A stretch of DNA of 64,000 bases from Heliocidaris erythrogramma (taxonomy: Eukaryota > Echinodermata > Echinoidea > Camarodonta > Echinometridae): the NCBI GenBank assembly GCA_025617745.1, contig CM046859.1, positions 28,385,371 through 28,449,370 on the forward strand, written 5' to 3'. Both the position numbers and the translations under genes were made by a program. The notes under the pieces were generated by a model. The model had not been told where the DNA came from. It did not search any database and saw nothing but the letters and a program-made list of their open reading frames with translations. Within the stretch, counting starts at the first letter, position 1. The number at the start of each line of letters is the position of its first letter. This document shows positions 5,361 to 63,640 of this stretch, in pieces.

Positions 5361-6113
5361 AGCATTCAGCTGGAATAGCTGTGAATTAATCCAATTTTAA
5401 GCAACATAATCATTTCAAACAAAATTTTAAGATATTTTGTTATGGCCCATGCATCTTAATGCGAAATGGACTGCGCAAACTACATTCTCTTTTATTCTAT
5501 TTTATGAACTCGAATTTGCAAATACATTTCGATGAAAAGAGAAGTACGTATAATGTTTGAAATCAGCTTCTAAGAAAAACTATATCTATTATGAATATTT
5601 AAATTAGTGCGTAGAGAATTTACGCAAAAACACAAAACGGTTTTATTATCTATTTAATTTGGATCTTTATTTTTCCAAAGCCACAATAAAGTTAGGCCTA
5701 AAGAGCTGTTCGTATAACATGCATGACATTTTTAAAAGTAAGTTAGCAGAAAAGGGTTGTCAAAGCAAAGATTGACTTGACGTTCTCTTCAAGAAACCAA
5801 ATGATTACGATTTGTAGAGAATTCTATTCTTACAATATATATATAGCATACAATATGTGTATCAATACCGCACAAAATGGGCCATCCAAGTCCACGATTA
5901 TGGTTTATACTGATAATCCCGCAGATGGAACACACTCTGTTTTGACACTTTAAGACAATTTATAAAAAAAATCTTGAGCCTGTCCTAACTTTGCTAGTCC
6001 AGTACAGGGTATATGAAGAGCAGTTTCATTGGTCAGACCCTCTGTTACGCGTTTACCAGCTGGTAAGTATAACGCAAGCCGGTAACTATAACGCAAATGT
6101 CGGAGCGGTCGTT
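5361..6113 (+). repeat. Duplicated 5' flank of a TRIM unit, copy 1
   Basis: It shares long colinear similarity with 20460-20700, 49463-50796 and 58200-59570. Shared words include TTTCAAGATATTTTGTAG-like, CAGAAAAGGGTTGTC, TTTTGACACTTTAAGACAAT and AGACCCTCTGTTACGCGTTT. No coding region is seen. It leads directly into the promoter-like module at 6114, and I interpret it as upstream sequence of a TRIM gene. Confidence 0.65.
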
Positions 6114-6266
6114 GGGAATACCCACTGCCGATTTTTGATCTTCACAATTGAAGTGTTGGCCTACCTGATCGTGAAGCCGGAAGTACCATCTGTTATGTTA
6201 GTAAGCACTTCGACATGTTCATATTAATGACAAGCCTGGTTTTCTACGACACATGTTACTTTAATG
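6060..6266 (+). promoter_or_regulatory. Promoter-like module 1 and candidate first exon of TRIM-A
   Basis: The box GGGAATACCC lies at 6114-6123, followed by GATCGTGAAGCCGGAAG and an exon-like stretch ending in a splice donor (TTTAATG then GTAAGTT at 6267). The same layout occurs at 20715 and 59582. No TATA box is obvious in this subfamily. In the 59582 unit the module lies only about 0.9 kb from the intron sequence that precedes the TRIM coding exon, so 6114 is the best candidate promoter for TRIM-A. Exon use is inferred; no transcript was seen. Confidence 0.5.
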
Positions 6267-7036
6267 GTAAGTTAATTTGATATGATTTATATCAATTATT
6301 AATATATTAAGAAGATTATAATTCATCCAGTAAACGTTGCCAATTAACGATATTCAGTGAATCAACAATTAATAATATATTTGCACTTGTAGATATAATG
6401 TAGCTGTACTTATCTATATGAAACTGTTAAAGTGTTATTCGATCTGCTGAGCTCCAACATAATTTTATATACTGACTAAAAGATTGATTTTTATTGTTAT
6501 CATAAAACTGCATGATAGACAAACTTCTCTAGATTTAATACACTCTATAACATACTCCCATAGATACTAGCAGCTTTTATTTTAGTTGGTTAATTCAGAA
6601 ATCATTTAAAAACACACCAGAGGTTCTGTTTGACACCACTGGTCATTTAAGCTGGCTTTGCCCCCCCCCCCCCCCCCCATCGACTTTGATTCTCGTGGCA
6701 TGGGGGAAAGGGGGCGGGGATCGGGGATGTCCATGCCTCATTTTCAGGTTTTGCAAAAAACCACTAAAAGAAAAAGGGAAAAAGCGGGGGAAGTGAGAGA
6801 AAAAGGCCTAAAAAGGCGCTACAAGCCGTTATTTTTCTCTCAAAATTTGCTAAAACATCAAAGTTTTCGCGCTTCGCGCGGGAAGGGGGAAATAGCTCTT
6901 CTCTCCCTGCACCCACCCTGGATACATACAGTGCAATATTGCCTCCAAATAACTGAAAAGCAGTCAGGGCGTCGAACTTTAACTTTCCGCCTATAAAAAA
7001 ATGTTTGCTACATGCAAGCCGTTTATCTTTCTCTCA
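6267..7036 (+). repeat. Putative TRIM-A intron start with a poly-C tract and satellite unit
   Basis: It contains a poly-C run (6660-6678) followed by ATCGACTTTGATTCTCGTGG, recurring at 51405 and 60205, then the first of the roughly 190-bp tandem units (AAGCCGTTATTTTTCTCTC, CTGCACCCACCC, AACTGAAAAGCAGTCAGGGC). The satellite is broken at 7036 by the LINE insertion and resumes at 13641. Confidence 0.6.
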
Positions 7037-7048
7037 AATTTTTTTTTT

Positions 7049-7871
7049 ATATTTATGCTTTTATTATAAATCATCAAGAATCACAATATTTACAAAATAT
7101 TGACATGATAAGAATATTAAAAAAAATACATGTATATATAAAAAGAAAAAGAAAAAGAGGCAGAACAATAATTATGTAAAACCTTCAATATTGATTAGGA
7201 ACAAGCTCCGAGACTGACAAAGGATGTATGATAGAGACACCAACCAGTATTTGCCTCACCTCCCTACTTAAGGCAGAATTATAATATTAATGATAGCGGC
7301 CTCACTGACAATCTGAGAAAAAACAAAACAAAACCAAACAGAAAACCACATGCAATGATAGCGACTCATAGAGCCGAGCCGAGTAGCAGGCAAACAAGGC
7401 TTCAACACCCAACCTGTGCCCACTCACATCCCTACCCCAAACCCCCCCCCCCCCCCCCTCTTTCTCTCTCTCTCTCTCTCTCTCCTTCTCCCTCTTCCAC
7501 CACACACACATACATGTATGCACACACACACACAAGATCATGCCGCTACCCGGACTCGGCCCGATAAGTCAATTCGTATCTTGCCGCGAGCACGAGGCTT
7601 GGAGGTAAATATCTACCATGCATGGTTGCTACGAGAAACGAAATGCAGGGGGTCAGGAGGTCATGCGATTGCCAAAATAAAAAGAAGTTACAGGATAAAT
7701 CTCGGAGATCGTTCTTGATGTACATGAACTGGCACATATGATAGGATACATGTAGCATTACAACATACAGGCGTCAACATAATTATGTAACCGATACATG
7801 GTAAAGTAAAATGACATTGGGTATAAAATACAAATGGCAAGAAAAGAGAATCCCTATACTTATAGGGAAAA
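7049..7871 (-). other. LINE 3' UTR with microsatellites
   Basis: Non-coding on the minus strand. It contains, on the + strand, a poly-C run (7441-7458), a CT repeat (7460-7485) and a CA repeat (7501-7535). These low-complexity tracts generate several spurious frames. Poly-T at 7039-7048 marks the A tail. Confidence 0.75.
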
Positions 7872-15713: not shown

Positions 15714-17549
15714 ATGGAAGGTGACTTCAAGAATGTCAATGCCCAAATCCTGGAGTGTCCCGTGTGTCTAAATATCTTCAGCGAACCCAAGCTCCTGACT
15801 TGTGCTCACACCTTCTGCAAGGGCTGTGTAGAACGTCTCATGGAATGCCATGCTAATGATGATGATCTAAAGCTATTGTGTCCAGTTTGCAGAGAGCCTA
15901 CACAGGTCCCCAAGAGAGATGTCAGCCAGTTACAGACCAATCTGGCTTTAAAGTCTCTTGTGGAAGACGTTAAGAATCAATACCAAAACTGCACCAATTG
16001 TAAAACCAAGGAGAAGCCCCAAGCTGTTGTCTACTGCCAAGATTGTGGCAAGTATCTTTGTTCCACTTGCCAAACCAAGCACTCCCAGTGGGAAAGCTTC
16101 AGCGATCATGAGGTGTTAGCCGTAAGTAAGATCACATCAGGCAATGTACCAGTACGAAGATACCGAAAATGCAGGAAACACCCGAAAGAAGACGAAGAAT
16201 GCTTCTGCTCTGGTTGCAGGATGTTCATCTGCTTCAGGTGTGGTGTAATGGAGCATGCTCACAAAGGACATCAAATCATCGATGCATCGGCCTTTGAAAA
16301 GGATCATAAGGAAAACATTGGGGAACTTAAATCCAAAGCCGACAAGAAATCTACTTGCATTAAGATATATATTGACTTCATCGATGAGCAGAAGAAGCGA
16401 GTGAGCAATGTAAGGAACCAGTGCATAGGTGATATCAACAAAGCCTATGAAGAATCAGTTCGACTGTTGACAGAGAAGAAAAAACACCTCGTTAATGAAG
16501 TCAAGACAAAGACCAACGAAGTGGATGTAGAGCTAGACAGGATGAAGGGTGCAGCTCAACAGCAGATCTCTCAAGTGACCACGATGACTGATCTTTTAGA
16601 AAACGGGACGAAGGTACCATTGGAGAAGGAGGCTTTGGCTGCACACCACACGCTATGTCAAGAACTACAAGAGACCTTAGAACAAGATGATCCGGACCGC
16701 AAGCAGGTTAGGTTATCGAGCAAGAAAGGAAAATGTTTCGCTTTTGAGAGAAATGTGGGGACCAATGAACTGAGTCTTGGTAAGATTGCTGATTCAGTGG
16801 GTAAGAATAACGCCTTGCCCAAAAAGAATAGCATGAATGTCATGGCTCCTACACCAGACGGTAGGATGGCAATTGGATGCTGTACGGGAGGAATCGAGAT
16901 CTTCTCTGCTGATGGTCAGCTACAGCAGACAGGGCTCAAGGATGTCTTAATCTATGGAATAGGATTCCTCTCCGATAGACAGTATGTTGTACTAGATTGC
17001 AGAGACAACATCACATTGTACACAACAGAGTGTAAAATTATGGATGCAAGGTTTGAGACTCTTAATAAAGATGAAGGTGGGGTAGGTGATCTCACTGTAG
17101 ACAGCAATGATCAAATCTATGTCAGCTACAAGAAAGCTGAGAAGATCCAGGTGTTCTCATCAGCAGGTGGTAAGGCTATCAGGGAGATACCATGCGATGG
17201 ATACAAACCTTGGCAAATCATTAGCAGTGATGGTTTATTGCTAATTAATTATAGTGGTACAACAATAACCATAGATTACGAAGGTAAGGTCAAACACAAG
17301 GTAACGAAATCATTTTTTTTCCCAGCTCCTTGTTTCACTCAAGATAATTCAGTCCTGATCGCCTGGGTCAACCATGATGAAGGGTTGGTCAGTATCGAGG
17401 AGTACACCACCGAACTAACGCATGTCAAGACACTCATCTCTGCTTACAAGATTAAGAAGTCTCAGAGAGACATGTGGTACTATCTGCGGGAGTTCCGATC
17501 AGGAGAGATTGCCTTCTGCACTACCGATAGACTCTACATCTTCAACTGA
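15714..17549 (+). CDS. TRIM-A: RING/B-box/coiled-coil E3 ubiquitin ligase
   Basis: 611 aa, uninterrupted. RING (C3HC4) uses C15, C18, C30, H32, C35, C38, C56 and C59. B-box 1 is about 93-132 (C93, C96, C108, C111, C116, C119, H123, H132). B-box 2 is about 153-186 (CRKH, then CFRCGVMEHAHKGH). A coiled coil follows at about 190-300, then a beta-propeller-like C-terminus of about 270 aa in the TRIM2/3/32/56/71 style without crisp NHL repeats. The family transfers ubiquitin to proteins and includes development and antiviral regulators; the target here is unknown. Met at 15714 is chosen because a splice acceptor ends at 15703 and TRIM-B starts at the same residue. The frame open to 15666 runs through the acceptor. 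Polyadenylation signals follow at 17629 and 18127. Confidence 0.92.
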   Translation: MEGDFKNVNAQILECPVCLNIFSEPKLLTCAHTFCKGCVERLMECHANDDDLKLLCPVCREPTQVPKRDVSQLQTNLALKSLVEDVKNQYQNCTNCKTKEKPQAVVYCQDCGKYLCSTCQTKHSQWESFSDHEVLAVSKITSGNVPVRRYRKCRKHPKEDEECFCSGCRMFICFRCGVMEHAHKGHQIIDASAFEKDHKENIGELKSKADKKSTCIKIYIDFIDEQKKRVSNVRNQCIGDINKAYEESVRLLTEKKKHLVNEVKTKTNEVDVELDRMKGAAQQQISQVTTMTDLLENGTKVPLEKEALAAHHTLCQELQETLEQDDPDRKQVRLSSKKGKCFAFERNVGTNELSLGKIADSVGKNNALPKKNSMNVMAPTPDGRMAIGCCTGGIEIFSADGQLQQTGLKDVLIYGIGFLSDRQYVVLDCRDNITLYTTECKIMDARFETLNKDEGGVGDLTVDSNDQIYVSYKKAEKIQVFSSAGGKAIREIPCDGYKPWQIISSDGLLLINYSGTTITIDYEGKVKHKVTKSFFFPAPCFTQDNSVLIAWVNHDEGLVSIEEYTTELTHVKTLISAYKIKKSQRDMWYYLREFRSGEIAFCTTDRLYIFN

Positions 17550-17640: not shown

Positions 17641-20160
17641 GGTCTGAGATGTTTTCTAGTGTAAACGCTTACTACGTGTTCTACTGGCAATCAGTGAACA
17701 GAAACAGAAATTTATGAGAAGCCAGAAAGCAGATTTCTGTTTGGAAAACAGGACACTACTAGTACATATGATTAGTATTATTATTTTACGATTATCATTT
17801 ACATTTCTTGTAAATGATAACAACAAGTGTTCTGAATCATTCAAATCGATTTTCGAATCAAACAAAATAATGTTAACTATTCTTCCGTCATTGCAAGTTT
17901 CGATCACTTCATGTCAAGTATCATGTGCAGTTATTCATCTACACGTAGCTATAGATAGTTAGATATACATAGATAGAACGATAGTTCATTACTGATGATT
18001 TGTTGATCATGTTAATATTGGAGTGGTTTTGAATTGTAATTGAAGAGATATAAGTAAGTTTACTTATATTTGAACACATGTATTTTGAAAATTAAGAATA
18101 CTATCATTGTTGTTATGTGCAGCGCTCAATAAAGAGGTTTACATTTTATGTATTATATATTACTAACATTAGAATCTGATTTTAAGTTCATAAAGTGTGT
18201 ACACAAATTCACCTAGAATTGTTTACTATTCAAATTTGATTTCTTTTAGATAAGTTAGTGAAAATGGGTAAGTCTAAATTCTGTTGCAATTTAGGCTGAA
18301 GATAATGATCATAAATAATAATATGCTACATTTATATAGCGCATTACGCGAATACTTCATGCGTTTTACAGTGTTATTTATTAGTTAGAATGTTAGACGA
18401 TGGAGTGCTGTCAAATCCTAAACATGTACTATAAATTTCTGTTTCATTTTCTCTGGTGAAAATAGTAGTTTGTGTTTATACCGTTGTAAAATCAATTTTA
18501 AAATGTCATTGATAATGGAAAACATATATCACTAACGTAAAAATGTCCTTATCCCTTTATTATTGATCAAAGTTATGTTCATAATTTCATATAGGCGTAC
18601 ATCCCTGCGTGTTCAGTGTGTTCACATAGTCGACTCTGTGAAGATGATTTCACACTGTGTTTCACACTGTGGACACACTGTGTTTTTTTCTGGTGGGGAT
18701 GTTATATCGATTATTATATGTTTTTCTAGCAAAGAAAAATTCTTGTATCAATCGTTTTCATTACAGTATCATTTCATTTGTCTAGTTACCGATGAAATTA
18801 ATTTGAATCCGTGATTGAGTAAGGAAAAAATGCTTCAGATACTATTAAACATTTATCGTTGACGCGAATACAAAAAACCAAAGACGCAAAATAGTATCTC
18901 CATTCTAAATTTGGTGATAATCATATTTCCTGAAAGATTTCCAGTACATTTACAATGCAACTACTTTATTTTTATTTGAGAGGTTTTAAAAGTTCCTTTG
19001 ATTCTTTGAAGAACGTGAGAGAAAAAAATGGGATAGACCTTTTTGTCGAAATATCTCAAGTTAGTTTGTGATTTATCTGGATGATCCCTTCTAGATATCA
19101 ATGCATAATACATACATGACTTACATGTATACACATTTCTTTTTATCTCTTTGTTTTGTTGTTAAAAATTAAACTAGCATTGACTCTCGATCCTTCTTTG
19201 TACCATGATTACGCCAATAAACATCCCTTTCTAAATTGAAAGTTCATGTTTGTAAAGAAGATATTGTTTTAGTTATTCTTTAGGAACATCATCATCATCG
19301 AGAGAGAGAGGGGGGGGGGGGACAGACGGACGGGGGAGGGGGTAGAGAGAAAGGGAGAGTTAGTGATAGATCATTGTAGATTGTTAGCATGGTTATAGCC
19401 CATGCAAATGGTATAGGCCTATATACTTTGGCAATGGCAACATATGCCACACTGGTGTTGCTATATTTTTAGTAACATTTACAAACTGAAAATAAGTGGG
19501 GCGAATCCGGGAACCATGAAAAGTGAGAATTTCAGTGGTCATCCCACAGTCTATTAGGGAGTGGCAGTGAGAAAGAGAGAGAAAGAGAGAGATTGGGACA
19601 TGGAGAGAAAGAGAAAGCAGAATACGGAATGAAGAGGGATGTGAAGCACATAATTCACCTTGGCCTTGATCTCACCGAAAGGGTCAGTGCGCTCTGGCGA
19701 TAATGGCTCCGCGTCAGTTTTGTACACTTACCGAGTTCTATAAACTTTCCCTCCACCAAACACTATACCATCTCCTAAACCTTACGCTTAACCTAATCTA
19801 ATACCCAATTGCAAAAATAACTCTAACCCGATACCTTTGACGAAATAAAGTCCGTAGCGGAGCACCAAGTGAAAGAGGGAGAGTCAGTACGGTGAGAGAG
19901 TTTTAGAGGAAGAGAGAAAGAGAATGACAGTGGGAGATAGAGTCAATGAAAGAGTGAGGGGGATAGAGAGAGAGGTGGCAGAGAGAGGGGGAGAGAGAAA
20001 GATGGAGAGAGAGAGAGGGAGGGAGAGAGAGGGAAGGAGGGGGGGGGGGGGGGCAAGAGAGACAGTAGGAGAGGGTAAATGAGAAAGTTGGCTGAGGGGG
20101 AGGCGGGGGGGGGGGGGGTAATGACATAGGGATTAATACAATTTTGCTTCACCCGCTTCT
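17641..20160 (+). repeat. TRIM 3' flank and intergenic copy a
   Basis: No gene is seen. It is colinear with 35880-38860 and, from 18170 on, with 23690-25500 and 28041-29860 (ATCTGATTTTAAGTTCATAA, AGAATTGTTTACTRTTCAAA, TTACATTTATATAGYGCATT). It ends in purine-rich GA tracts (19300-19360, 19560-19620, 19870-20110) with G runs. This copy lacks the SINE found in the other two, giving an empty site near 19060. Confidence 0.7.
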
Positions 20161-20300
20161 ATTGATCTGTGTGAACGGTAGGTGGGAAAACCCAGTGTCT
20201 ATAAAGGGTATCATGTCATCACTTATTTGACATGTACTTGATCGTGAACTCGGAAGCACAAAATGTAATATTGGAACTCCTAATGATGACCATGCTTATT
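20161..20300 (+). promoter_or_regulatory. Promoter-like module 2
   Basis: The variant box GGGAAAACCC lies at 20184-20193 with TATAAAG at 20200-20206, then ATCATGTCATCAC and GATCGTGAACTCGGAAG. The exon-like part decays after about 20290, with no GTAAGTT donor. It seems an orphan copy. Confidence 0.5.
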
Positions 20301-20690
20301 TTAGCTTGTAGGTTGAGGTTTTATGCACTTGTTAAATTAGCAAAGGGTTTTTAGATACATTTTAATGAAAAAGAAATAAAATGACTAAAACAAAAGTTTA
20401 TTAAAAGTAATTGCTAAAAGAATAAGCAAGAACATCGCTTCATTTTCTATTTAATTTGATATTTATTCCCACATATGCCAAATATATATTAGGCATAAAA
20501 TTTATAACATTGGAGTAAACTGACAGAAAAGGGTTGTCATTTATAAGCAAAGCTTGAATAGACGTCCTCTTCAAGAAACCAAATGATTACGATTTATAGA
20601 AAATGCAATTCATAGAATTCTATATAAATATGGAACAAGAGGTCAGACCCTCTGCTACGCATTACGACTGACAAAGGTCTGTGCTGGTAA
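20301..20690 (+). repeat. Short flank copy of the first subfamily
   Basis: AAACTGACAGAAAAGGGTTG and CGTCCTCTTCAAGAAACC match 5740-5800 and 59200-59250. No gene is seen. Confidence 0.5.
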
Positions 20691-20873
20691 ACTACTGCAA
20701 ATGTGGGAACGGTTGGGAATACCCAGTGCCGAAAAATATAATTATTTCACAATTGAAGTTTACCTGATCTTGAACCCGGAATCACCGTGTGTAACATGTT
20801 ATGTTAATAAGCTCTTGGACATGTTCATTTCTCATGACAAGACTGCTTTTCTACGACACATGTTACTTTATTG
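20691..20873 (+). promoter_or_regulatory. Promoter-like module 3 with exon-like end
   Basis: GGGAATACCC at 20715-20724 is followed by CTGATCTTGAACCCGGAA and a donor TTTATTG then GTAAGTT at 20874. It belongs to the same subfamily as modules 1 and 7. No TRIM coding exon follows before the next unit, so it may be an orphan. Confidence 0.5.
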
Positions 20874-21487
20874 GTAAGTTATTTTTATATGATTTATATA
20901 AATTATTCATATATTTCTAGAAAGATTATAATTCATCTAGTAAACGTTGACTATTAACAATGTTATGAATCAGTCATTAAAAAAATATATATATACTTTT
21001 TGATATCATAGCTCTACATGATTTGTCCTATGCCCTAAAGAGGGAACGAGCTTGTTCGGAAATTTTGGCGCATAAATACGGTACAGTATAGGTGGTAACA
21101 ATGCATCACTATACACTGTCATCATTTATTTCATCTGTAGACTCTCTATTGTAGCTGTATATGTAGGCCTTTATCAAACTCTTAATACAGATTAAACGAT
21201 TGAACGTTTAACATGATTATATTACTGCATGACAGACCTATGTACTTCCTCTGATTTCAGCACATTTTATATCTTACTCCCAGACTCTAACTTTCAGAAT
21301 TTATTTTAGTTGATTAATTTATCAATCATAATGCCCTCTGTGATTATATCAGGCGCAAACTCTTTCCTACCACTCACACCTTCATTAACATACTAGTAAG
21401 AATGATTTTAATGGCGCCATCGACCACAATGGGTAAAGAACAGTGTTCCGCAATGTTAAAAAAACTTAAAGTAGCTATCCAAAGAGA
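20874..21487 (+). other. AT-rich sequence after module 3
   Basis: The first part resembles the putative intron after module 1 (TATCATAGCTCTAC-like, GATTATATTACTGCATGA). Otherwise no gene or named repeat is seen. Confidence 0.4.
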
Positions 21488-22246: not shown

Positions 22247-22354
22247 AGGAGCAGCCAACTGTAAAACCGCCCATAGATTGCGACTTGTCGCTTCCTTTAA
22301 AATGGAAGGTAACTTCAAGAGCGCGACTCTCCACTTAATCGCGCGATCCCAAAA
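22247..22354. other. Short unique junction
   Basis: About 108 bases between the truncated TTAA element and the tandem duplication, with no recognised feature. Confidence 0.4.
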
Positions 22355-22369
22355 TACTCGATGAACCCG

Positions 22370-23345
22370 GACGTAACCCAGACGCCATAATTTCAAAACA
22401 ATCGCAAAGCTTGGACGAACTCCTTTTGTCCGCACAGAAGGGGTTCGTACGATTGAATGTAGGCGGCTTCCAGAAAGCGTAAATGCGCTGAGCTTCTGGC
22501 CCGGGACATAATTGCGAATTGATCGTCAGCATAGCTTTGTGCGCAAGCTGGATTGTTCAGCAAGTGGATACCAATCGCTGAATTGCATTTGGGTATCTTT
22601 GGTCTGTTAGCGTGCATTTCAGATTTGCAGGTACGGACGGGCTGCATGCGCTGATTGGTTGTACGGTTCCGAATAGTCGAGGGGACGGGTTGTTTAATGC
22701 GATCAGCCAACCGCTGAGTAGTACGGCCCACGTACCTGGCATCGCACCGGCACTGAAATTGGTAAATAACAGGGATAACATTACACAAGTGGGGGTGGGT
22801 AGTATATCCTTGCTAGTTGACGGTAGCATCCTGCGTGTAGAAAACACAATGCGTGTCGAAACCGCGTAATAGCAACGTGACACTGCGTGTTTGATCTGAC
22901 TGGCGTATTTGTCAGATACCTTACCCATCCAGGGTAGTTTGAGATACACGGGGCATTTGGCAGGTCCAAATTTGGTGTCAGACTTGGATTGTGCCTCCAG
23001 CGTCCGTGTTATGGTGCGAGATATAACATGCTCAGGGTAACCATTGTCAAGGAGAGTAGTTTTGATTTTCGCGATTTCGGGAGCTAATTTGCACTCAGAG
23101 CAAATCCTAAGGGCGCGGCACACTAAGTTTCTAATGAGCCCAATCTTGTATGAAGTTGCACGTACTGTACGAGTCCCACGCCCGGTGAATGTGGGCTTGC
23201 GGTAGACGGAAGTGATAAATTTCCCATCACTTCTCTCCACGAGAACGTCGAGAAATGGGAGCGCATTGGACAGTTCAATTTCACATGTGGATTTTAGCGC
23301 GGGATGGAGCCGGTTCGACTGAACCGGCTCCATCCCGCGCTAAAA
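22370..23345 (-). pseudogene. Penelope-like element fragment: RT end plus GIY-YIG endonuclease
   Basis: Minus strand. The first frame starts near 23333 with the end of the RT (LPFLDVLVERSDGKF, VYRKPTFTGRGT) and a linker (PVYLKLPWMGKVSDKYA). After a frameshift near 22870 a second frame (22788-22393) gives the GIY-YIG nuclease (CRCDARYVGRTTQRLADRI). The RT catalytic core is missing, so this is a 5'-truncated dead copy. The 3' end coincides with the start of the tandem duplication at 22355. It is a different family from the element at 53070-56022. Confidence 0.85.
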
Positions 23346-23354
23346 TTCACATGT
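23283..23354. repeat. 34-bp inverted repeat with a 4-base loop at the Penelope-like 5' end
   Basis: Arms 23283-23316 and 23321-23354 differ at one position and enclose GACT. The arm contains GCGCGGGATGGAGCCGGTTC. It sits exactly where the element's coding frame begins and the MITE half begins. The copy at about 27642-27713 is identical. Confidence 0.9.
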
Positions 23355-23683
23355 TCATTGTTCTGTTATATAGAATAGTTGATGATAGCCAAAAGAGATG
23401 TTATCTGAAGAAAAACAGAAAAAAAAAGCATTCTACTGACAACACTTCTTGTAAAGCCCATACATTGTATACACAAAATTATTTTTTGTGACTTTCGTCA
23501 TGAATATGTGCTATATCTCCGCAACCGTACCCTGATTTTCACAAATAGTCTTAAAATGTGCGCGAGACATAAAAGAAAAAAGTCATGAAATTTCAGCACG
23601 AGATCTTTTCGCGTTAAAAAATTATCGCCAAAAATGTTGAGGGGGGGGCTAAATTAGCCCCCCCCCCCCCGGGCTATTGAGGG
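23345..23683 (+). mobile_element. Right half of a piggyBac-like MITE
   Basis: It matches 49985-50314, ending GGGCTATTGAGGG then TTAA at 23684-23687. The left half is replaced by the Penelope-like fragment. A G run, CTAAATTAG, then a C run forms a small hairpin near the right end. Confidence 0.75.
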
Positions 23684-23687
23684 TTAA

Positions 23688-25500
23688 TACTAACCTTAGA
23701 ATCTGATTTTAAGTTCATAAAGTGTTACACAAATTCACTTAGAATTGTTTACTGTTCAAATTTGATTTTTTTTTTTAGATAAGTTAGCGAAAATAAGTAT
23801 AAAATTCTGTTGCAAGTTATGCTGAAGATAATAATAAAAAATAATATGTTACATTTATATAGTGCATTACGCGAAACTGAACAATGTGCTCCACAGTGTT
23901 ATTTGTTAGTTAGAATGTCAGAAGATGAAGTGCTTTCAAATCCGAAACATGGACTATACATTTCTGTTTTATTTTCTCTGGTGAAAATAATAGTTTGTGT
24001 TTAGTGTAAAAATCAATTTTAAAATATCATTATATATAATAATGGAAAACAAATCACTAACGTAAAAATTTGTCCGTTTTCCTTCATTATTGATAAAAAA
24101 TTATGTTCATAATTTCATATAGGCCTACATGTTATATCGACAAGTTTTTCTAGCAGTAAGAAATACTTGTATCAATCTGTTGTCACTACCATTTTATTTT
24201 GTCGAGTTACCGATGGCATTGATGTATCATGTCGTGTCTGAGTAACGAAAGGATAGTAAGATACTATTAAACATTTCTTCGTCATTGACGCATAAGTTAA
24301 TAATCCACAATATAGTCAACTAAGAAACCCTCGGAAATCGATTGAAATAACTCATGAACATGAAATATGTGTGTATTAGCTTCCATTTTTGTATACCTTG
24401 CAATTGTCACGAACGCGTTAGAATACAAAGAATCAAAGAGGCAAAATAGTATATTGATCCATTACAAATTCGATGATCATGTTTCCTGAAACATTTGCAG
24501 TAAATTTATGGACATGTACAGTGCAACTACTTTCATTTTTATTTTGAAGTTTTGAAAAGTTCCTTTGATTCTTTGTCTGAAGAAAGTTAGAATAAAAAAT
24601 GATAAAATAATGGGTTAGACCTTATCGCACTATAACTTATCAATATAACTAAAATAATTTTGTGGAGGTGTTGTGGATCAGTGGATAAGTCCCTGGACTG
24701 TGAACCACGAGGTCCGGGGTTCGAATCCCACCGCAGCACTAGCGTCCTTTGGCAAGACGTTAATCTACATTTGCCACTCTCCACCCAGGTGTTAAATGGG
24801 TACCCGGTAGGATGCGAAAGTTAATGTCGTTTGCTTAGCATGTGGACTGGCTGGAATACTCCCCAGGGAGCGGATAAAGTGCACACATTGTGTGCGGGCA
24901 TGTCAGAATCCGATGACCGGGGTAATAATATATCTGTAAAGCGCTTAGAAACACAACCATGTATTAGGCGCTATATAAAAGCGGAATATTATTATTATTA
25001 TTATTTATCAGGATGATCACTTCATCTACATTTATATATTATTGTATACATTTCTTTTGATCTCTATATGATTTGTTGTTAAAGCATTAGATTAGCGTTC
25101 TCCTTCTTTGTAAATTAAAGTTTATGGTTTTAGAGAAGATATTCTTTCAGTTTATGAGGACATACTTTAGGAACATTCTCGAGACAGAGGAGAGAGGGAT
25201 AAATGGAGGGACGGGGAGGGGGTAGTGAGCGAGGGAGAGTCAGTGAGAGAGACATAGAGACAGAGACAGACAAAGGAAGACGAGAGGGAGATATTTTGAG
25301 AAGGTGGCAGAGACAGAGAGGGTGGAAGAAAGAGAGGGGAGAACCATAGAGAGAAAGAGAGAAGAAGAAGAATGGTGAGGAAGCATATAACTCTCTCAGT
25401 GGTTCATCTCACCTGAATATACCCTTTATCTCTACGAAATAAACTGAGATCATGTTGTTATGTTCGATAATGGCGTAGCGATAAAATAACATTTCACTAC
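23688..25500 (+). repeat. TRIM flank copy b with purine-rich tract
   Basis: Colinear with 18170-20160, interrupted by the SINE at 24661-25006. A GA-rich tract at 25180-25370 precedes the promoter module. No gene is seen. Confidence 0.7.
24661..25006 (+). mobile_element. tRNA-derived SINE with ATT tail
   Basis: The tRNA-like head has an A-box-like TGGATCAGTGG and B-box GGGTTCGAATCCC; the anticodon-position triplet reads GTG. A body follows (AGGTGTTAAATGGGTACCCG, GTAAAGCGCTTAGAAAC), then GCGCTATATAAAAGC and an ATT-repeat tail. The related flank at 19060 lacks it. The two small frames across it are artefacts. Confidence 0.8.
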
Positions 25501-25690
25501 TTCACCCGGCTTCTGTTGATCTGTGTGAACGGTCTGTGGGAATACCCAGATCTATAAATAGCATCATGTCATCACGTATTTGACGTGTATACTTGATCGT
25601 GAACTCGGAATGCAGTATAGGAACACCCATGATGATCGTGTTTATCTGTCATGCACAAGATTGGTTTTCTCTAAATATCTTCATATATTG
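25501..25690 (+). promoter_or_regulatory. Promoter-like module 4 (orphan copy)
   Basis: CTGTGTGAACGGTCTGTG is followed by GGGAATACCC (25538-25547), TATAAATA (25553-25560), CATGTCATCACG, GATCGTGAACTCGGAA and an exon-like end TATATTG with donor GTAAGTT at 25691. It is identical to module 5, but no coding exon follows before copy 2. Confidence 0.6.
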
Positions 25691-26596
25691 GTAAGTTGTT
25701 GTTGTTGTCATGTGATTTATAATTCCTTCGCTTTTTGGCTCTCATAAATGAGAGTCATCCTGACAATTGTGAAATAACCAACTTGGATTAGAGCAATAAT
25801 CGTATGTAAGATTCCAAATGGCCTATTGTAGGGTCGGTGTTAATGATTGTTATGAAGCTCAATGTAGGATAAACATGTATTAATATAATATGGACTGGGC
25901 TTGAGGGGGAAACAAAATTTGCGTGAACTAGAATTGCTTTCGTCTTCGACTCGGGCATTACGATTCTAGTGAGGGCAATTAAAGTTGTATTCCCTGAAAG
26001 TGCCAGTCCATATCATTATTATTAACAGATTCAGACATCTCGAGCGGTCTCGGAAATATTGTTAAGAATTGCAGTATATTGCCCACTATTTAACACGCAA
26101 AATCCCATTGACTTTCGAGACCGGGCAATAAACAATTTATCTGCCCGCAATTTTGTTGGCTTGTCAAAGCCGGGCAATAAAATGTAAAAAATGCATTGCT
26201 CAGATGTCTGATATGGTTAATAATGCATTATATTCCCCTAAAAGTAATGATATTTTAAGGTATTTTAAAAGGATTTTTTTTTCTCGCTTGCTGCTGTTAT
26301 CATTGAACCGGTAAATACGTTTTGGGCTGATAGGTACCCCCTTCCCCCATGTAGGCTATATGACTCTCATTCATCGGTTGCTTTTTTGTTGGCAGATGTA
26401 TGATAAAATTTGTTGTTATCCGTCTAAACTTTTACGAGTAGTTAATAGGCCTATCTAAATGAGTTAGATGAACTTTGTACGGTGACTTGTGAATACTTCT
26501 ATTTGCTGATTGCTGATACATAGGCCCGTCTCTCAAAATAACGCAATCTTGTTTTTGATCAAGTCACAGCTGTCTGCATCAGACTTTCCAACATTC
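25691..26596 (+). other. Intron-like sequence after module 4
   Basis: Same as 30045-30950. It includes an imperfect inverted pair at about 26025-26225 (ATTCAGACATCT and AGATGTCTGATATG) enclosing repeated GGGCAATAAA words, probably a degraded MITE, and a short stem CTCTCATAAATGAGAG near 25740. No gene is seen. Confidence 0.5.
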
Positions 26597-26716
26597 TTAT
26601 GTATTGCTTTGTTTCAATATGGCACGAAAAAGAGACATGATAACGAAGCTTTTCGACCTGCACTCATCAGGTTATCACGCAGGTATATAACAAATTACTT
26701 GAAATCAACTATATTA
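26597..26716. other. 120-bp spacer between duplication copies
   Basis: Not shared with the other copy boundary. It contains TTATGTATTGCTTTGTTTC where the continuing intron at 30951 reads ATTTTTGCATTGC, so there may be slight residual similarity. Confidence 0.4.
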
Positions 26717-26731
26717 TACTCGATGAACCCG

Positions 26732-27700
26732 GACGTAACCCAGACGCCATAATTTCAAAACAATCGCAAAGCTTGGACGAACTCCTTTTGTCCGCACAGA
26801 AGGGGTTCGTACGATTGAATGTAGGCGGCTTCCAGAAAGCGTAAATGCGCTGAGCTTCTGGCCCGGGACATAATTGAGAATTGATCGTCAGCATAGCTTT
26901 GTGCGCAAGCTGGATTGTTCAGCAAGTGGATACCAATCGCTGAATTGCATTTGGGTATCTTTGGTCTGTTAGCGTGCATTTCAGACTTGCAGGTACGGAC
27001 GGGCTGCATGCGCTGATTGGTTGTACGGTTCCGAATAGTCGAGGGGACGGGTTGTTTAATGCGATCAGCCAACCGCTGAGTAGTACGGCCCACGTACCTG
27101 GCATCGCACCGGCACTGAAATTGGTAAATAACAGGGATAACATTACACAAGTGGGGGTGGGTAGTATATCCTTGCTAGTTGACGGTAGCATCCTGCGTGT
27201 AGAAAACACAATGCGTGTCGAAACCGCGTAATAGCAACGTGACACTGCGTGTTTGATCTGACTGGCGTATTTGTCAGATACCTTACCCATCCAGGGTAGT
27301 TTGAGATACACGGGGCATTTGGCAGGTCCAAATTTGGTGTCAGACTTGGATTGTGCCTCCAGCGTCCGTGTTATGGTGCGAGATATAACATGCTCAGGGT
27401 AACCATTGTCAAGGAGAGTAGTTTTGATTTTCGCGATTTCGGGAGCTAATTTGCACTCAGAGCAAATCCTAAGGGCGCGGCACACTAAGTTTCTAATGAG
27501 CCCAATCTTGTATGAAGTTGCACTGTACGAGTCCCACGCCCGGTGAATGTGGGCTTGCGGTAGACGGAAGTGATAAATTTCCCATCACTTCTCTCCACGA
27601 GAACGTCGAGAAATGGGAGCGCATTGGACAGTTCAATTTCACATGTGGATTTTAGCGCGGGATGGAGCCGGTTCGACTGAACCGGCTCCATCCCGCGCTA
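26732..27700 (-). pseudogene. Penelope-like fragment, duplicate
   Basis: Same as 22370-23345 with an extra 4-base deletion near 27520 that splits the first frame in two (27691-27485 and 27485-26919). GIY-YIG frame at 27150-26755. Dead. Confidence 0.85.
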
Positions 27701-27704
27701 AAAT

Positions 27705-28037
27705 TCACATGTTCATTGTTCTGTTATATAGAATAGTTGATGATAGCCAAAAGAGATGTTATCTGAAGAAAAACAGAAAAAAAAACATTCTACTGACAAC
27801 ACTTCTTGTAAAGCCCATACATTGTATACACAAAATTATTTTTTGTGACTTTCGTCATGAATATGTGCTATATCTCCGCAACCGTACCCTGATTTTCACA
27901 AATAGTCTTAAAATGTGCGCGAGACATAAAAGAAAAAAGTCATGAAATTTCAGCACGAGATCTTTTCGCGTTAAAAAATTATCGCCAAAAATGTTGAGGG
28001 GGGGCTAAATTAGCCCCCCCCCCCGGGCTATTGAGGG
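27705..28037 (+). mobile_element. Right half of piggyBac-like MITE, duplicate
   Basis: As 23345-23683, with shorter G and C runs. It ends at 28037 before TTAA (28038-28041). Confidence 0.75.
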
Positions 28038-28041
28038 TTAA

Positions 28042-29860: not shown

Positions 29861-30044
29861 CGGCTTCTGTTGATCTGTGTGAACGGTCTGTGGGAATACC
29901 CAGATCTATAAATAGCATCATGTCATCACGTATTTGACGTGTATACTTGATCGTGAACTCGGAATGCAGTATAGGAACACCCATGATGATCGTGTTTATC
30001 TGTCATGCACAAGATTGGTTTTCTCTAAATATCTTCATATATTG
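29861..30044 (+). promoter_or_regulatory. Promoter module 5 and candidate first exon of TRIM-B
   Basis: GGGAATACCC at 29892-29901 and TATAAATA at 29907-29914, with a start expected about 25-30 bases later. The untranslated first exon would end at 30044 (TATATTG) with donor GTAAGTT. It lies 1.9 kb upstream of the TRIM-B ATG with a good acceptor between. The box is one base away from a Rel/NF-kB consensus (GGGRNNYYCC). Function is inferred from recurrence and position. Confidence 0.6.
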
Positions 30045-38860: not shown

Positions 38861-38997
38861 TGATCTGTGCGAACGGCGGGTGGGAATACCCAATATACTA
38901 TAAATAGAATCATGTCATCACGTATTTGACGTATAGTTTAGTTGATCGTGAACTCGGAAACAGAAGATGTAATATTGGAACTCCCATAAATCTTTGG
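38861..38997 (+). promoter_or_regulatory. Promoter-like module 6 with decayed donor
   Basis: GGGAATACCC at 38882-38891, TATAAATA at 38899-38906, then CATGTCATCACGTATTTGAC and GATCGTGAACTCGGAA. The donor position reads GTAATTT (38997) instead of GTAAGTT. It is followed by a decayed TRIM unit. Confidence 0.5.
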
Positions 38998-40124: not shown

Positions 40125-40335
40125 TTGTACTTGATTACAATAACAACATTACATTGTACACAACAGAGATTGAGCAGCTTAGTGTAGAGTTCGAAACTCT
40201 GAGTGACGAAGAAGGCGGGTATTGTAGACAGCGATGTTCAGATCTATGTCAGCTACAGGAAAGCTAAAAAGATCCAGGTATTCTAATCAACAGGTGGGAA
40301 TGCGATAAGGGAGATACCGTGCGATGGATAGAGAC
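40125..40335 (+). pseudogene. TRIM pseudogene fragment (propeller region)
   Basis: It matches TRIM-A 16988-17200: AACATYACATTGTACACAAC, CAGATCTATGTCAGCTACA, GATCCAGGTRTTCT and GGGAGATACCRTGCGATGG. Frameshifting gaps are present (near 40220 and 40290) and a stop (ATTCTAATC) follows. Only about 210 bp remain; RING and B-boxes are gone. The preceding module 6 and flank d show it once belonged to a full unit. Confidence 0.85.
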
Positions 40336-53070: not shown

Positions 53071-53293
53071 GATTGGAAGAGGTTCATCGTGGTGAAGAAT
53101 AATTGAAGAGAGTTAATCAGTTGTCTCACGATGTGCAAACGTAAACGTAGGAAGTCTGACGTTTCGGCTGCTAGATGTCAATGCCGTTATCCCTGTTAAT
53201 GTTATTCGAGTGCAATCGTTTACGTTTGCACATCGTGAGACAACTGATTAACTCTCTTCAATTATTCTTCACCACGATGAACCTCTTCCAATC
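53071..53293. repeat. 77-bp inverted repeat at the Penelope-like 5' end
   Basis: Arms 53071-53147 and 53217-53293 are perfect by eye, around a 69-base spacer. The spacer part 53174-53218 is the reverse complement of 55513-55557 in the coding region. Sequence 53095-53175 is the reverse complement of the element's 3' end (about 55950-56022). Confidence 0.85.
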
Positions 53294-59138: not shown

Positions 59139-59570
59139 AGTTTATGGACTACAGAGTTGTTCGCATAAAATGTATAATATTTAAGTAAACTGGCAGAAAA
59201 GGGTTGTAATTTATAAGCAAATTTAAGCTTGAAAGGGCGTCCCCTTCAAGAAAAACGATTTATACAGAATTTTCTTTCTACAATGTATATTTACACAATA
59301 CATGAATGGGCAATCCAAGCACATGATCATACGATAACCTCGCAGATTTAGTCTGCAGGAACAGAATCTACATGTATTTTGACACTTTAAGACAATTCCA
59401 TAAAAAAATTCTTGAGTCTGTCCTAACTTTGCTAGTCTATAGCTGCGTCAGAAGCAGCTACACTACAGGGCATATGGAGAGCAGTTTCCTTAGTCTCAAA
59501 GTTCAGACCCTCTGTTACGCGTTTTCCAGCACAGACAAAGGTATGTGCTGGCAAACTACCGCAAATGTCG

Positions 59571-59710
59571 GAGCGGTCGTTGGGAATACCCAGTGCCGAT
59601 TTTTCATTCCATCGTGAACCCGGAAGTACCATTTGTTAAGTTAGCAAGTTCTCTGGCATGTCTATTTTTCACGACTAGCCTGGTTTTCCACGACACATGT
59701 TACTTTATTG
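59571..59710 (+). promoter_or_regulatory. Promoter-like module 7 with exon-like end
   Basis: GGGAATACCC at 59582-59591, TCGTGAACCCGGAAGTACCA and an end TTTATTG with donor GTAAGTT at 59711. Same subfamily as modules 1 and 3. No coding exon follows. Confidence 0.55.
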
Positions 59711-60670
59711 GTAAGTTAATTTGATATGATTTATATCAATTATCAATATATTTTTATGAAGATTACCATTCATCCAGTAAATGTTGACAGTTAACGATGT
59801 TATGAATCAATATTTAATAACATATTTCCAGATATCATGTAGCTGTACTTATCTATATCAAACTGTTATTCTGCTGAGCTCCAATATACTGCATGATTAA
59901 AAGATTGAAGTTATTATTACCAAACTGCATGATAGACAAGCTTCTCTAATTCTAACACACTCTATATAACCTACTCATATAGATACTAACAGCTTTTATT
60001 TCAATTGGTTAATTCAGCAATCATAATGCCGTTTGTGATTATATTATGAGGGGCGAAATATTTAATGGCCCCACGTCTTCATTAACTAGTAAGACGGACC
60101 AGAAGGGCTAACCCCCCCCCCAAAAAAAAAAAACAAACAAACAAACAAACAAACAAACTCATAGGTTCTGATTGAAATCACTGGTAATTAAGCCAGCACC
60201 CCCCCCCCCCTCATCGACTTTCCTTCCCTGGCATGGGGGAATGGTGGGAGGGGGGGGGGGGGGGGTGTGTCCATGCTTCATTTTCAGGTTGTGCAAAAAA
60301 GGCCAATGGCCATTTAACACAACAGGCATATCTTCGTAAATCCCATGCCTGCTCGGTCGGACCCTTTCAACTTCTGAAGCCTGTAAAGGATAATGTAAAG
60401 GGTTGTAATAAATAATAAACAATAGGCATAATAACACTACGTCCGGGCTCTCGGCCTCCAAAAAGGGGCATGCATTGCAACTTCATTTTTTTTTTCATGA
60501 AGACCCCAACCCCCCCCCCCCCCCCCAACCCCTCCCCCCTCACCGTCAACGATTAGACCGGACCATTCTTTCAGTTAGATATAGGCCTACATGTTTAATT
60601 GGGAAGTCGTAAAAATTAATTAATCAATTATCTTTCAAGAAATAAATCATCGGGTGAATGTAGCTATTAG
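59711..60670 (+). repeat. Intron-like sequence of a unit lacking its coding exon
   Basis: The start matches 6267-6660. 60420-60670 matches the end of the TRIM-A intron (15330-15570). The coding exon expected after 60670 is absent and a G-rich tract (60684-60711) follows. Poly-C lies at 60107-60120, 60199-60210 and 60510-60526, and a CAAA repeat at 60130-60160. No gene is seen. Confidence 0.6.
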
Positions 60671-61500: not shown

Positions 61501-61649
61501 TAAAAAAAACATTTCACTTCACCCGGCTTCTGTTGATCTGTGTGAACGGTCTGTGGGAATACCCAGCATCTATAAATTGCATCATGTCATCACGTGTTTG
61601 ACGTGTATACTGTCTTGATCGTGAACGCGGAAGTATAAGATATAGTATA
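61501..61649 (+). promoter_or_regulatory. Promoter-like module 8, exon split by an insertion
   Basis: GGGAATACCC at 61555-61564, TATAAATT at 61571-61578, CATCATGTCATCACGTG and GATCGTGAACGCGGAAG. The exon-like part continues at 63490 (GGAACACCTATGATGATC) and ends at 63563 before GTAAGTT. Confidence 0.6.
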
Positions 61650-61845: not shown

Positions 61846-62493
61846 GCGATTTCGTAATTAGGATTTGCGCATGAGCAGATAAAGGTCATTTGACATAAAC
61901 TGGCATGTTCGTTTAAAATGCACTGAGATAAGCGTCGACTGTGTAATGATTATTCATATATTCATTTAATTATACTTTTCATTAAATCCACTGAAAAGCA
62001 ACAAAGTGTTCATTGATGGTTGGTATTTGACAGTCTGCCAAATGATAGCCAACTTGCAAACAATGCGCTTTCCCAAGTGTTCATTGACGTGCTATTCTAG
62101 TCACCTGGTCTACGATGTCTTTCTTTCATAGAGTTTAAATTCTTTAGGTTGCTATGTCGGGCAAGCTTACGTATTATCTTTCTTTGAAAAGATGCCTATC
62201 CTAATGAAAAAGGGAAAGGTCATTTGCGAAAAGTTGCTCATGGGCCAATAGACCTGTTTACTCAGTGATTCAAATTTATGGATGTTTCTTTCCTGGGGAC
62301 CTAGTAACGAGGTATCCATTAACATGTTATTAATGAATGAACTACAATACTTGGAATCGAGTTTGCATACATTGCTTGTTGCTATGTCTGACAAGCCTCT
62401 GGCAAGCTTTCAGGTTGTCAAGAACAACCTTTGTTTCAAAAGTATGTATAAAATTTGAATCACTTATTAGTAAACAGGTCTATTACGAAATCG
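61846..62493. mobile_element. Nested element with AATAAGCGATTTCGTAAT ends
   Basis: The left end near 61848 and the inverted right end ATTACGAAATCGCTTATT (62476-62493) match. A second inner pair (GACCTGTTTACTCAGTGATT near 62249 and its inverted form near 62460) suggests further nesting. No coding. Confidence 0.55.
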
Positions 62494-63332
62494 CTTATTA
62501 CGCAACTGTAGTGCAAGAGCCATCATCTGCTGCACAGGCATGGCGTGGTAAGTAAAACTTTAAGACATTAAATTTAGAACTTCTTTATGCCAATAAAGGT
62601 ATCAAATAATATGATAATTACATTAATTTTTGTGGTGGTGGATATGAAACATGATGAAAAGCAATGAAGTGGAAATGCCATGTTTCAGCGTGTGGCCAAC
62701 CGTCTACGGTACGCGTTGTCGTTGACATGAAAATTGTTGATCAGCCAGGCATGGGCCCCGATCGACCGCACGGGCCGGGCCGGGCCTGGGAAGTTTGGAA
62801 GGCAGTGTGTGTGCTTTTTTCGTCACGATTGTGGATTGCCGAAAGGAACAATTAAACCTCTGAAATTGCTACTTCTTGGTCTAAAGTAATTCTCAGATGA
62901 TTAAATCCACATGCCATGGTTTCAGTCGATATCTATGTATATAACCAGTTCATATCAATCTAAAAACAAAATCTAGACCTTAGTGTAGGGCTGTTTAACA
63001 GACTATAGAAGAGTGAGTTTTCAGCACTACAGGTGTGATTTTGTGCATACTGTTTGTGTGTGTTCTTTAGCACTATATTGGGTGTAAAAGTGTTAGCACT
63101 AGTAGTTCCGTTTGGGGGCTCTAAAATGAGTTATTTAATGCACTATAAGTGTTGTTTTTGCGAGCTACATGCGTCTAATAGCACCAGAAGTGTAAAAGGC
63201 TTACACTTAAAGTGTTTAAAGTAGCACTTGGACTGGTGTTGAATTATAGCACTTGTACAAGTGCTACTTTAGCACAATTTGTGCAGTCCCTATGCATGCC
63301 CTTACGGGTGCTTCCTCCAAATCTTGAGGTGC

Positions 63333-63451
63333 CATGGGCGCCAATCCTCACAGGAATTCTATTCAAGTGGGGGGGGGGGGGACACCCCATTGTTGCATCC
63401 AGGTGTGTCCCTCCCACTTGAATAGAATTCCTATGAGGATTGACGCCCATG
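63333..63451. mobile_element. 119-bp MITE with CATGGGCG ends
   Basis: TGAGGTGC at 63325-63332 and 63452-63459 is an 8-bp target duplication. About 38-base inverted ends include AGGAATTCTATTCAAGTGGG, around a G run and GACACCCCATTGTTGCATCC. hAT-like by duplication length. Confidence 0.8.
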
Positions 63452-63487
63452 TGAGGTGCTAATAATAGCACTTTATTTTTTAGAGTG

Positions 63488-63640
63488 TAGGAACACCTAT
63501 GATGATCATGTTTATTTTTCATGCACGACAAGACATTTTTCTCTAAATAATCTTCATATATTGGTAAGTTGTTGTCACGTGATTAATAATTCCTTCGCTT
63601 TTTGGCTTTCATAAAATATGAGTCATACTGACCATAGAGT
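63488..63640 (+). promoter_or_regulatory. Second half of module 8 exon and donor
   Basis: GGAACACCTATGATGATC to TATATTG (63563), then GTAAGTT. The next bases (TTCCTTCGCTTTTTGGCT) match the intron after modules 4 and 5. Confidence 0.6.

What the first reader, a model, noticed from the sequence alone, without database searches (positions are those of the whole stretch)
6060..63570. Eight copies of a promoter-like module with a near-invariant GGGAATACCC box in a TRIM cluster
The box occurs at 6114, 20715, 25538, 29892, 38882, 59582 and 61555, with the one-base variant GGGAAAACCC at 20184. Two subfamilies exist: one has TATAAA about 5-8 bases after the box, the other lacks it. Both are followed by a GATCNTGAA-CGGAAG word, and in most copies by an exon-like end with donor GTAAGTT. 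The box outlasts surrounding decay. It is one base off the Rel/NF-kB consensus, notable beside a gene family often used in innate immunity. That it binds Rel is inference.
Basis: partly seen in the sequence, partly recalled or inferred. Interest (0 to 1): 0.75.

Follow-up and report, generated by a model that had tools for sequence, protein, structure and literature searches.

The report
Conserved promoter box of TRIM genes
In a sea-urchin-like genome, a 12-letter DNA word that looks like a binding site for the immune regulator NF-kB sits just before the TATA box, or in the matching place, of TRIM genes in several chromosome clusters, which suggests that one kind of switch controls part of this enlarged immune gene family; nobody has yet tested whether it does.

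Summary
The eight modules are the promoter plus first exon of tandemly duplicated TRIM genes in an unnamed, sea-urchin-like 1.06-Gb genome, not a dispersed repeat: exact box plus GATC word (a pattern that catches 5 of the 8 window modules) has 8 sites genome-wide, reversed control 0; seven lie in this TRIM cluster, one 0.9 kb before a TRIM gene on C21. A box-masked profile finds the same eight modules; all keep the box (7 exact, 1 one-base change). Between the two subfamilies box cells are 97.5% identical, other ungapped cells 51%.

The box reaches further. Divergent TRIM genes on C9 carry TGGGAATTCCCA, a perfect NF-kB palindrome; a C19 cluster carries TGGGAATACCCA. TGGGAAWWCCCA-N2-5-CTAWAA has 39 sites (control 2); 37 have a same-strand TRIM start within 20 kb, 0.03 expected. 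Ten of 16 TRIM upstream regions sampled outside C7 lack GGGAAWWCCC.

Most likely a Rel/NF-kB site; the same 10-mer is published as an NF-kB and an Ikaros site. Binding, transcription and induction are untested. Promoter types and coding exons appear to have been recombined.

The parts
6037..6278 (+). Module A: box 6114-6123, GATC word 6167-6182, donor GT at 6267; presumed promoter and exon 1 of T1
   Evidence: first module upstream of T1, 9.6 kb, with retroelement ORFs between
20134..20262 (+). Module B with one-base box variant GGGAAAACCC at 20184-20193, TATAAA 20200; donor lost
20647..20885 (+). Module A: box 20715-20724, donor GT at 20874; no TRIM coding exon directly after it
25485..25697 (+). 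Module B: box 25538-25547, TATAAA 25553, donor GT at 25691; tandem-duplicate of the module at 29892, without its own coding exon
29839..30051 (+). Module B: box 29892-29901, TATAAA 29907, donor GT at 30045; presumed promoter and exon 1 of T2, 1.9 kb upstream of its ATG
38832..38966 (+). Module B: box 38882-38891, TATAAA 38899; donor lost; TRIM fragment 1.2 kb downstream
59507..59722 (+). Module A: box 59582-59591, shortened spacing to CATCGTGAA word, donor GT at 59711; followed at 60414-60659 by a match to the region just before T1
61502..61639 (+). Module B: box 61555-61564, TATAAA 61571; exon 1 interrupted by about 1.85 kb of inserted sequence
63484..63635 (+). Displaced exon-1 tail and intron start of module 61555 (GGTAAGTT at 63563)
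15714..17549 (+). T1: TRIM coding exon (RING, B-box), 611 aa plus stop, acceptor AG just before 15704
31830..33641 (+). T2: TRIM coding exon (RING, B-box, long helix, beta-propeller), 603 aa plus stop
40124..40330 (+). TRIM coding fragment with a stop inside, 1.2 kb after module 38882
22354..30963 (+). Tandem duplication: 22354-26607 and 26716-30963, 99% identical, carries module B twice and ends before the T2 coding exon

Best explanation
Each module is the 5' end of a TRIM gene: proximal promoter (box; in B a TATA box 5-7 bases later) and a short first exon that splices to one large coding exon. The box, TGGGAAWWCCCA in its wider form, is a conserved dyad-like factor site, most likely bound by a Rel/NF-kB dimer that raises transcription on immune or stress signalling, so that TRIM genes in several unlinked clusters share one input. 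The modules spread with the genes by tandem and segmental duplication; some copies have no coding exon directly after them. A and B 5' ends look older than the T1/T2 coding split and were recombined with coding exons, probably through intron 1. Shown by sequence: anatomy, conservation, genome-wide association with TRIM genes, presence of Rel-homology-domain exons in this genome. Inferred: transcription start, splicing, identity of the factor, inducibility, mechanism of exchange.
For: Box-masked profile recovers the same 8 modules, all with the box; box 117/120 identical A-B cells against 767/1500 elsewhere, 1 parsimony change in 10 columns against 172 in 125; A-B similarity confined to promoter plus exon 1 (z 11-12) with introns and upstream at shuffled level. 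Box plus GATC word: 8 sites genome-wide, control 0, 7 in the C7 TRIM cluster and 1 before a C21 TRIM gene. GGTGGGAATTCCCA: 20 of 29 sites in C9 TRIM regions, 19 of the 20 on the TRIM strand. TGGGAATACCCAGT: 14 of 17 sites in TRIM clusters. Composite: 39 sites, control 2; 37 of 39 with a same-strand TRIM start within 20 kb, 20 of 39 within 2.5 kb. Same 10-mer published as NF-kB site. Rel-homology-domain exons at four loci. In S. purpuratus coelomocytes TRIM genes rise after UVB (PMC13043383, passages).
Against: No transcript, chromatin or binding data. The bare 10-mer has 1466 sites genome-wide, so box alone does not mark TRIM genes; with looser spacing 47 of 65 kB-TATA sites lie outside the TRIM clusters known here, near the reversed control of 34. 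Ten of 16 sampled upstream regions of TRIM genes outside C7 lack GGGAAWWCCC within 2-4 kb. Cluster members are copies of one another, so 39 sites amount to about five lineages. The C7 form misses the strict kB consensus by one base, and across 18 modules the left half TGGGAA never changes while the right half does in two, which also suits Ikaros or CSL. Five of 8 window modules have no TRIM coding sequence directly after them.
Confidence: 0.6

Rival explanations
1. The box is a site for an Ikaros-type zinc finger or for CSL/Su(H) (Notch), not for Rel.
For: GGGAATACCC is the core of the Ikaros probe IK-BS1 (PMC3747153, PMC10836806, PMC8548914; passages), and subfamily A even shares TTGGGAATACCC with it. 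TGGGAA is unchanged in 18 of 18 modules. YGTGGGAA (CSL consensus, recalled) overlaps the box in 3 of 8 window modules.
Against: The right half CCCA is kept too in most copies, and C9 genes carry the palindrome TGGGAATTCCCA, which does not fit the Ikaros word TGGGAATRCC (recalled). YGTGGGAA is absent at the box in 5 of 8. Whether this genome has an Ikaros-type gene was not searched.
Confidence: 0.17
2. The box binds some other, unknown factor or is part of an unusual core promoter of TRIM genes.
For: The box lies at a short, nearly fixed distance before TATAAA (5-7 bases in 5 of 5 B copies); other blocks (GATCGTGAAC, TGTGTGAACGG) are conserved too.
Against: The three box forms all fit GGGWWWWCCM (Dorsal consensus, recalled), and the same 10-mer is a described NF-kB site.
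Confidence: 0.18
3. No selection on the box: it persists because the copies are young or kept alike by gene conversion.
For: Within A flanks are as alike as the core; several C7 modules are recent duplicates.
Against: Introns and upstream regions of A and B have no detectable similarity left, yet the box is kept; conversion tracts of 12 bases between diverged flanks are unlikely; the box recurs before TRIM genes 45-65% identical to T2 on C9 and C19.
Confidence: 0.03
4. The module is a transposable element or dispersed repeat.
For: Several copies lack a coding exon; the window holds retroelement ORFs.
Against: Box plus GATC word has 8 sites in 1.06 Gb, 7 in one TRIM cluster and 1 before a TRIM gene; all 8 window copies lie on the TRIM strand; the ends of similarity differ from pair to pair.
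Confidence: 0.02

Closest known systems
NF-kB site GGGAATACCC of the SOD2 second-intron enhancer (PMC5745496, one passage seen)
   Same: identical 10 bases; stress and immune context
   Different: an intronic enhancer in mammals, not a promoter box a few bases before TATA; no binding shown here
Ikaros probe IK-BS1 (PMC3747153, PMC10836806, PMC8548914; passages seen)
   Same: identical core GGGAATACCC, in subfamily A TTGGGAATACCC
   Different: a laboratory probe for vertebrate lymphoid factors; the C9 form TGGGAATTCCCA departs from it
Enlarged TRIM family of Strongylocentrotus purpuratus, raised after UVB in coelomocytes (PMC13043383, passages seen)
   Same: same protein family; T2 is 55-61% identical to the S. 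purpuratus proteins listed
   Different: the passages seen mention no promoter element
Immune gene families with shared promoter sites (vertebrate MHC class I enhancer A, interferon-response elements of antiviral TRIM genes; recalled, no call)
   Same: a common cis element serves a duplicated immune family
   Different: here the site lies at a short, nearly fixed distance before the TATA box in B-type promoters and is shared by distant paralogs of an invertebrate

Membership tests
Rel/NF-kB (kB) site | sequence fits a kB consensus | tested here: inconclusive
   8 of 8 window boxes fit GGGWWWWCCM, 0 of 8 fit GGGRNNYYCC; the C9 form GGGAATTCCC fits both. Consensus words recalled.
Rel/NF-kB (kB) site | bound by a Rel dimer and needed for induction | not testable with these tools
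   no binding or expression data
Rel/NF-kB (kB) site | Rel-homology-domain proteins exist in the genome | tested here: met
   PF00554: 10 exon matches over the cut-off at four loci
Ikaros site | TGGGAATRCC-type word (recalled; probe seen) | tested here: inconclusive
   7 of 8 window boxes fit TGGGAATRCC, 8 of 8 fit TGGGAAWRCC; the C9 form TGGGAATTCC does not fit
Ikaros site | an Ikaros-type gene exists in the genome | not tested
   paper searches gave only general remarks; the genome was not searched for it
TRIM proteins (T1, T2) | RING, B-box, coiled coil, C-terminal domain | tested here: met
   RING and B-box by Pfam; long helix 185-290 and beta-propeller in the T2 model, mean pLDDT 67, RING part low; propeller like NHL domains of Thin, TRIM2, Brat
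Transposable element | many dispersed copies with common ends in both orientations | tested here: not met
5S-rRNA-derived element (TGGGAATACC is also in 5S rRNA, recalled) | match to a 5S rRNA model | tested here: not met
   no Rfam match in the window at gathering scores; around module 59582 with E up to 10 two chance matches, neither 5S; other modules were not searched at that laxer threshold

The most novel reading that the evidence does not exclude
TRIM genes spread over several chromosomes form one regulon: a kB-TATA core promoter (TGGGAAWWCCCA, 2-5 bases, CTAWAA) that is close to exclusive to TRIM genes in the genome, has been kept across paralogs down to about 30% protein identity, and is passed between genes as a promoter-first-exon cassette, so that newly duplicated or recombined coding exons come at once under the same Rel-type switch.
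Probability: 0.38. Interest if true: 0.78.

Novelty: new member of a known kind. Interest (0 to 1): 0.62.

Why it matters
Sea urchins have much enlarged innate immune gene families, and how such a family stays under common control while its genes multiply, die and recombine is little known. A short sequence signature that picks out TRIM genes across the genome makes that testable: it predicts which TRIM genes answer to Rel signalling and which do not, it can point to members a first search did not list (it led here to TRIM genes on C8, C21 and C4), and it offers a case in which promoter type and coding exon seem to have separate histories.

Tried and rejected
Dispersed repeat or transposon: rejected. 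5S-rRNA-derived piece: no support. Ascertainment by the box itself: tested by masking the box; same eight modules. Search of viral contigs for the GATC word: 0 hits, uninformative for an animal genome. Literature on a sea urchin TRIM promoter element: the rows listed by the searches showed none; beyond the passages named I saw listings only, capped lists, in an open-access library. The comparison within A as evidence for selection: rejected, flanks are as alike as the core. Core-promoter words DPE/MTE were considered for GATCGTGAAC from memory and not pursued. A looser kB-TATA pattern was tried as a harder test of specificity: 65 sites, 18 in TRIM clusters, 47 elsewhere, reversed control 34, so it is the spacing and flank, not the mere neighbourhood of box and TATA, that marks TRIM genes.

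Dropped or chosen rows. Box plus GATC word needs the exact box and a gap of 18-48 bases; it misses window modules 20184, 38882 and 61555, so 8 sites is a lower bound. In one search I used 99 TRIM places: 73 of the 77 (4 second fragments dropped), 25 chosen from the listed matches, and 1; the C8, C21:10 Mb and C4 places were sought because of the hits. One search scored 73 of 767 candidates, 150 of 525, so TRIM counts are lower bounds. The pattern was itself drawn from TRIM examples.

Exon 1 of B is not proven to be noncoding: in the joined T2 leader the frame is open with an in-frame ATG 30 codons upstream, whereas the T1 leader has in-frame stops (exon starts there are my assumption). I take the MEGEF/MEGDF start as the true one; its M is invariant in the 30 aligned sequences.
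Full report
What was given. A reader saw eight copies of a promoter-like module around the box GGGAATACCC in a TRIM cluster. Every coordinate is right, all on the + strand. The box with its flanks is TGGGAATACCCA in 7 of 8 and TGGGAAAACCCA at 20184. In 64 kb the exact 10-mer is expected about 0.05 times.

What the window is. T1 (15714-17549) and T2 (31830-33641) are single coding exons with RING and B-box domains. The listed relatives of T2 are Strongylocentrotus proteins (55-61% identity) and Lytechinus proteins (49-57%), plus a few from unnamed sources (best 120 of 224 shown), so the animal is sea-urchin-like. The T2 model has a long helix and a beta-propeller resembling the NHL domains of Thin, TRIM2 and Brat (mean pLDDT 67, propeller mostly 83-93). 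A TRIM fragment lies at 40124-40330. T1 and T2 differ by dN 0.13-0.14 and dS 0.32-0.42. The window is G000:C7:28385371-28449370 of a 1.06-Gb genome in 26 contigs.

Anatomy of a unit. Promoter (box; in B TATAAA 5-7 bases later), first exon with the words GATCNTGAA (7 of 8) and CGGAA (8 of 8), donor GTAAGT, intron, acceptor, coding exon. Module 29892 lies 1.9 kb before T2; module 6114 lies 9.6 kb before T1, with ORFs of a retroelement (endonuclease and reverse transcriptase) in between; module 38882 lies 1.2 kb before the TRIM fragment. Module 25538 is the copy of 29892 in a 4.25-kb tandem duplication at 99% that stops short of the coding exon. GGTAAGTT occurs six times on the + strand of the window, always at a module.

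Is the box specially kept? A profile with the box masked finds the same eight modules plus the displaced exon tail of 61555, so the count is not an artefact of looking for the box. Between subfamilies A and B the box is identical at 117 of 120 cells, the other ungapped columns at 767 of 1500; on a tree built without it the box has 1 change in 10 columns, the others 172 in 125. A/B similarity covers promoter and exon 1 (z 11-12), while introns (z -0.7 to 0.7) and upstream regions (z -2.4) are at or below the level of shuffled sequence. Within A the comparison is uninformative. In 264 kb of C7 plus the C21 copy I count 18 modules: 13 exact, 3 GGGAAAACCC, 1 GGGAATAGCC, 1 GGGAATACCA; TGGGAA is unchanged in 18 of 18, though at least four of them are near-identical duplicates of others.

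Promoter and coding exon seem to have separate histories. T1 (A) and T2 (B) share their coding exon from 23 bases before the ATG, and parts of their 3' flanks (z 11.0 and 19.5), but their introns show no similarity. The C21 gene has an A promoter, yet its coding part is nearer T2 (78% over 222 aa) than T1 (73% over 229 aa). The simplest reading is recombination in intron 1; this is inference from few genes.

Genome-wide test. Exact box plus GATC word: 8 sites, reversed control 0; seven in the C7 TRIM cluster (five of the eight window modules and two more), one on C21 followed 0.9 kb later by a TRIM coding region. The bare 10-mer has 1466 sites against 644 for the reversed pattern, so the box alone is no marker. 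Upstream of TRIM genes on C9, mostly 56-65% identical to T2, GGGAATTCCC stands in 5 of 6 regions sampled; the module profile aligns that place clearly in 3 of the 5 (E 1e-7 to 2e-6), weakly in one (0.83) and not in the fifth. GGTGGGAATTCCCA has 29 sites (control 1), 20 in C9 TRIM regions, 19 of these on the TRIM strand, 9 elsewhere; 18 of 29 have a same-strand TRIM start within 20 kb. TGGGAATACCCAGT has 17 sites (control 0), 14 in TRIM clusters on C7, C19 and C20; 12 of 17 have a same-strand TRIM start within 20 kb. The composite TGGGAAWWCCCA-N2-5-CTAWAA has 39 sites (control 2); 37 of 39 have a same-strand TRIM start within 20 kb and 20 of 39 within 2.5 kb, with about 0.03 expected within 20 kb. 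The two exceptions lie inside the C7 cluster. Seven sites lay outside the clusters; one of each group was read (C8, C21:10.7 Mb, C4), and 3 of 3 gave a TRIM-like ORF 0.2-0.4 kb downstream: RING and B-box by Pfam for C8 and C21, by alignment to T1 alone for C4 (28.9%, E 2e-15). One search places TRIM matches 0.3-0.4 kb after 5 of the 6 C8/C21 sites; the sixth, C8:29821595, has none listed within 19 kb.

Limits of that test. Genes of one cluster are copies of each other, so the hits amount to about five lineages (C7/C21:16 Mb, C9, C19/C20, C8/C21:10 Mb, C4; my grouping by place and identity). The composite pattern was drawn from TRIM examples. With looser spacing and flank 47 of 65 hits lie outside the TRIM clusters (reversed control 34). 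Of 16 upstream regions sampled outside C7:28 Mb, 6 hold GGGAAWWCCC and 10 do not within 2-4 kb, among them all three on C20 and those on C2, C15, C18, C7:17.5 Mb, C19:35 Mb and C9:42.8 Mb; a promoter may lie further off, as in T1. The TRIM clusters at C6:11.9-12.1 Mb, C21:24.4-25.1 Mb and C21:27.8-28.0 Mb have no site of the composite pattern. So the box marks some TRIM lineages, not all.

Which factor? GGGAATACCC is described as the NF-kB site of the SOD2 intronic enhancer (PMC5745496, one passage) and is the core of the Ikaros probe IK-BS1 (PMC3747153, PMC10836806, PMC8548914; passages). The forms AATA, AAAA and AATT, between TGGG and CCCA, suit a dyad dimer site of Rel type; GGGAATTCCC fits the kB consensus in full, but not the Ikaros word TGGGAATRCC (both recalled). 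Against this, GGGAATACCC misses the strict kB consensus by one base (0 of 8 boxes fit GGGRNNYYCC), and the left half is kept better than the right. Rel-homology-domain exons exist at four loci; an Ikaros-type gene was not searched for. I put Rel at about 0.6 and Ikaros or CSL at 0.17. In S. purpuratus coelomocytes TRIM genes are among the genes most raised after UVB, and NF-kB is named among the signalling genes raised (PMC13043383, passages); this fits but does not test the idea.

Verdict. The new points are the reach of the box to unlinked TRIM clusters and the separate histories of 5' ends and coding exons.

Noticed in passing
window 7872-13488: Minus-strand ORFs with reverse transcriptase and endonuclease domains (a LINE-like element, broken into several ORFs) lie between module 6114 and T1, in the presumed first intron. 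The chance near-match GGGAATCCCC at 13362 falls in its last ORF.
   Followed up: no
window 22354-30963: The 99% tandem duplication gives T2 two nearly identical upstream promoter-exon-1 copies (25538 and 29892), both with intact donors, so T2 might use alternative first exons.
   Followed up: partly
G000:C7:28513028-28529490: A second copy of the A-T1-B-A stretch: T1-like gene 99.5% identical at 28524214, with its three modules, about 123 kb from the first.
   Followed up: partly
window 53175-55746: ORFs with a partial reverse transcriptase match (PF00078 below cut-off) that recall a Penelope-like element (label from memory).
   Followed up: no
G000:C2:2063427-2067505: Four copies of GGGAATACCC spaced about 1.32-1.39 kb on one strand, apparently a tandem array unrelated to TRIM as far as seen.
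   Followed up: no
whole genome G000: GGGAATACCC is 2.3 times as frequent as the same pattern read backwards (1466 against 644), most of it not explained by the TRIM sites.
   Followed up: no
G000:C21:8.26-10.29 Mb: GGGAATTCCCTGGTATAAA occurs five times, a second repeated kB-TATA arrangement with another spacing; genes beside it were not looked at.
   Followed up: no
window 474-485: TGGGAAATCCCA, another GGGWWWWCCC-type palindrome, next to a direct repeat (487-692 and 745-950) and not part of a module.
   Followed up: no
G000:C8:29.80-29.85 Mb and C21:10.51-10.85 Mb: Clusters of short TRIM-like ORFs (RING and B-boxes, about 220-240 aa, about 33% identical to T1), several with a TGA inside the match; they may be first exons of longer genes or truncated TRIMs.
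   Followed up: partly
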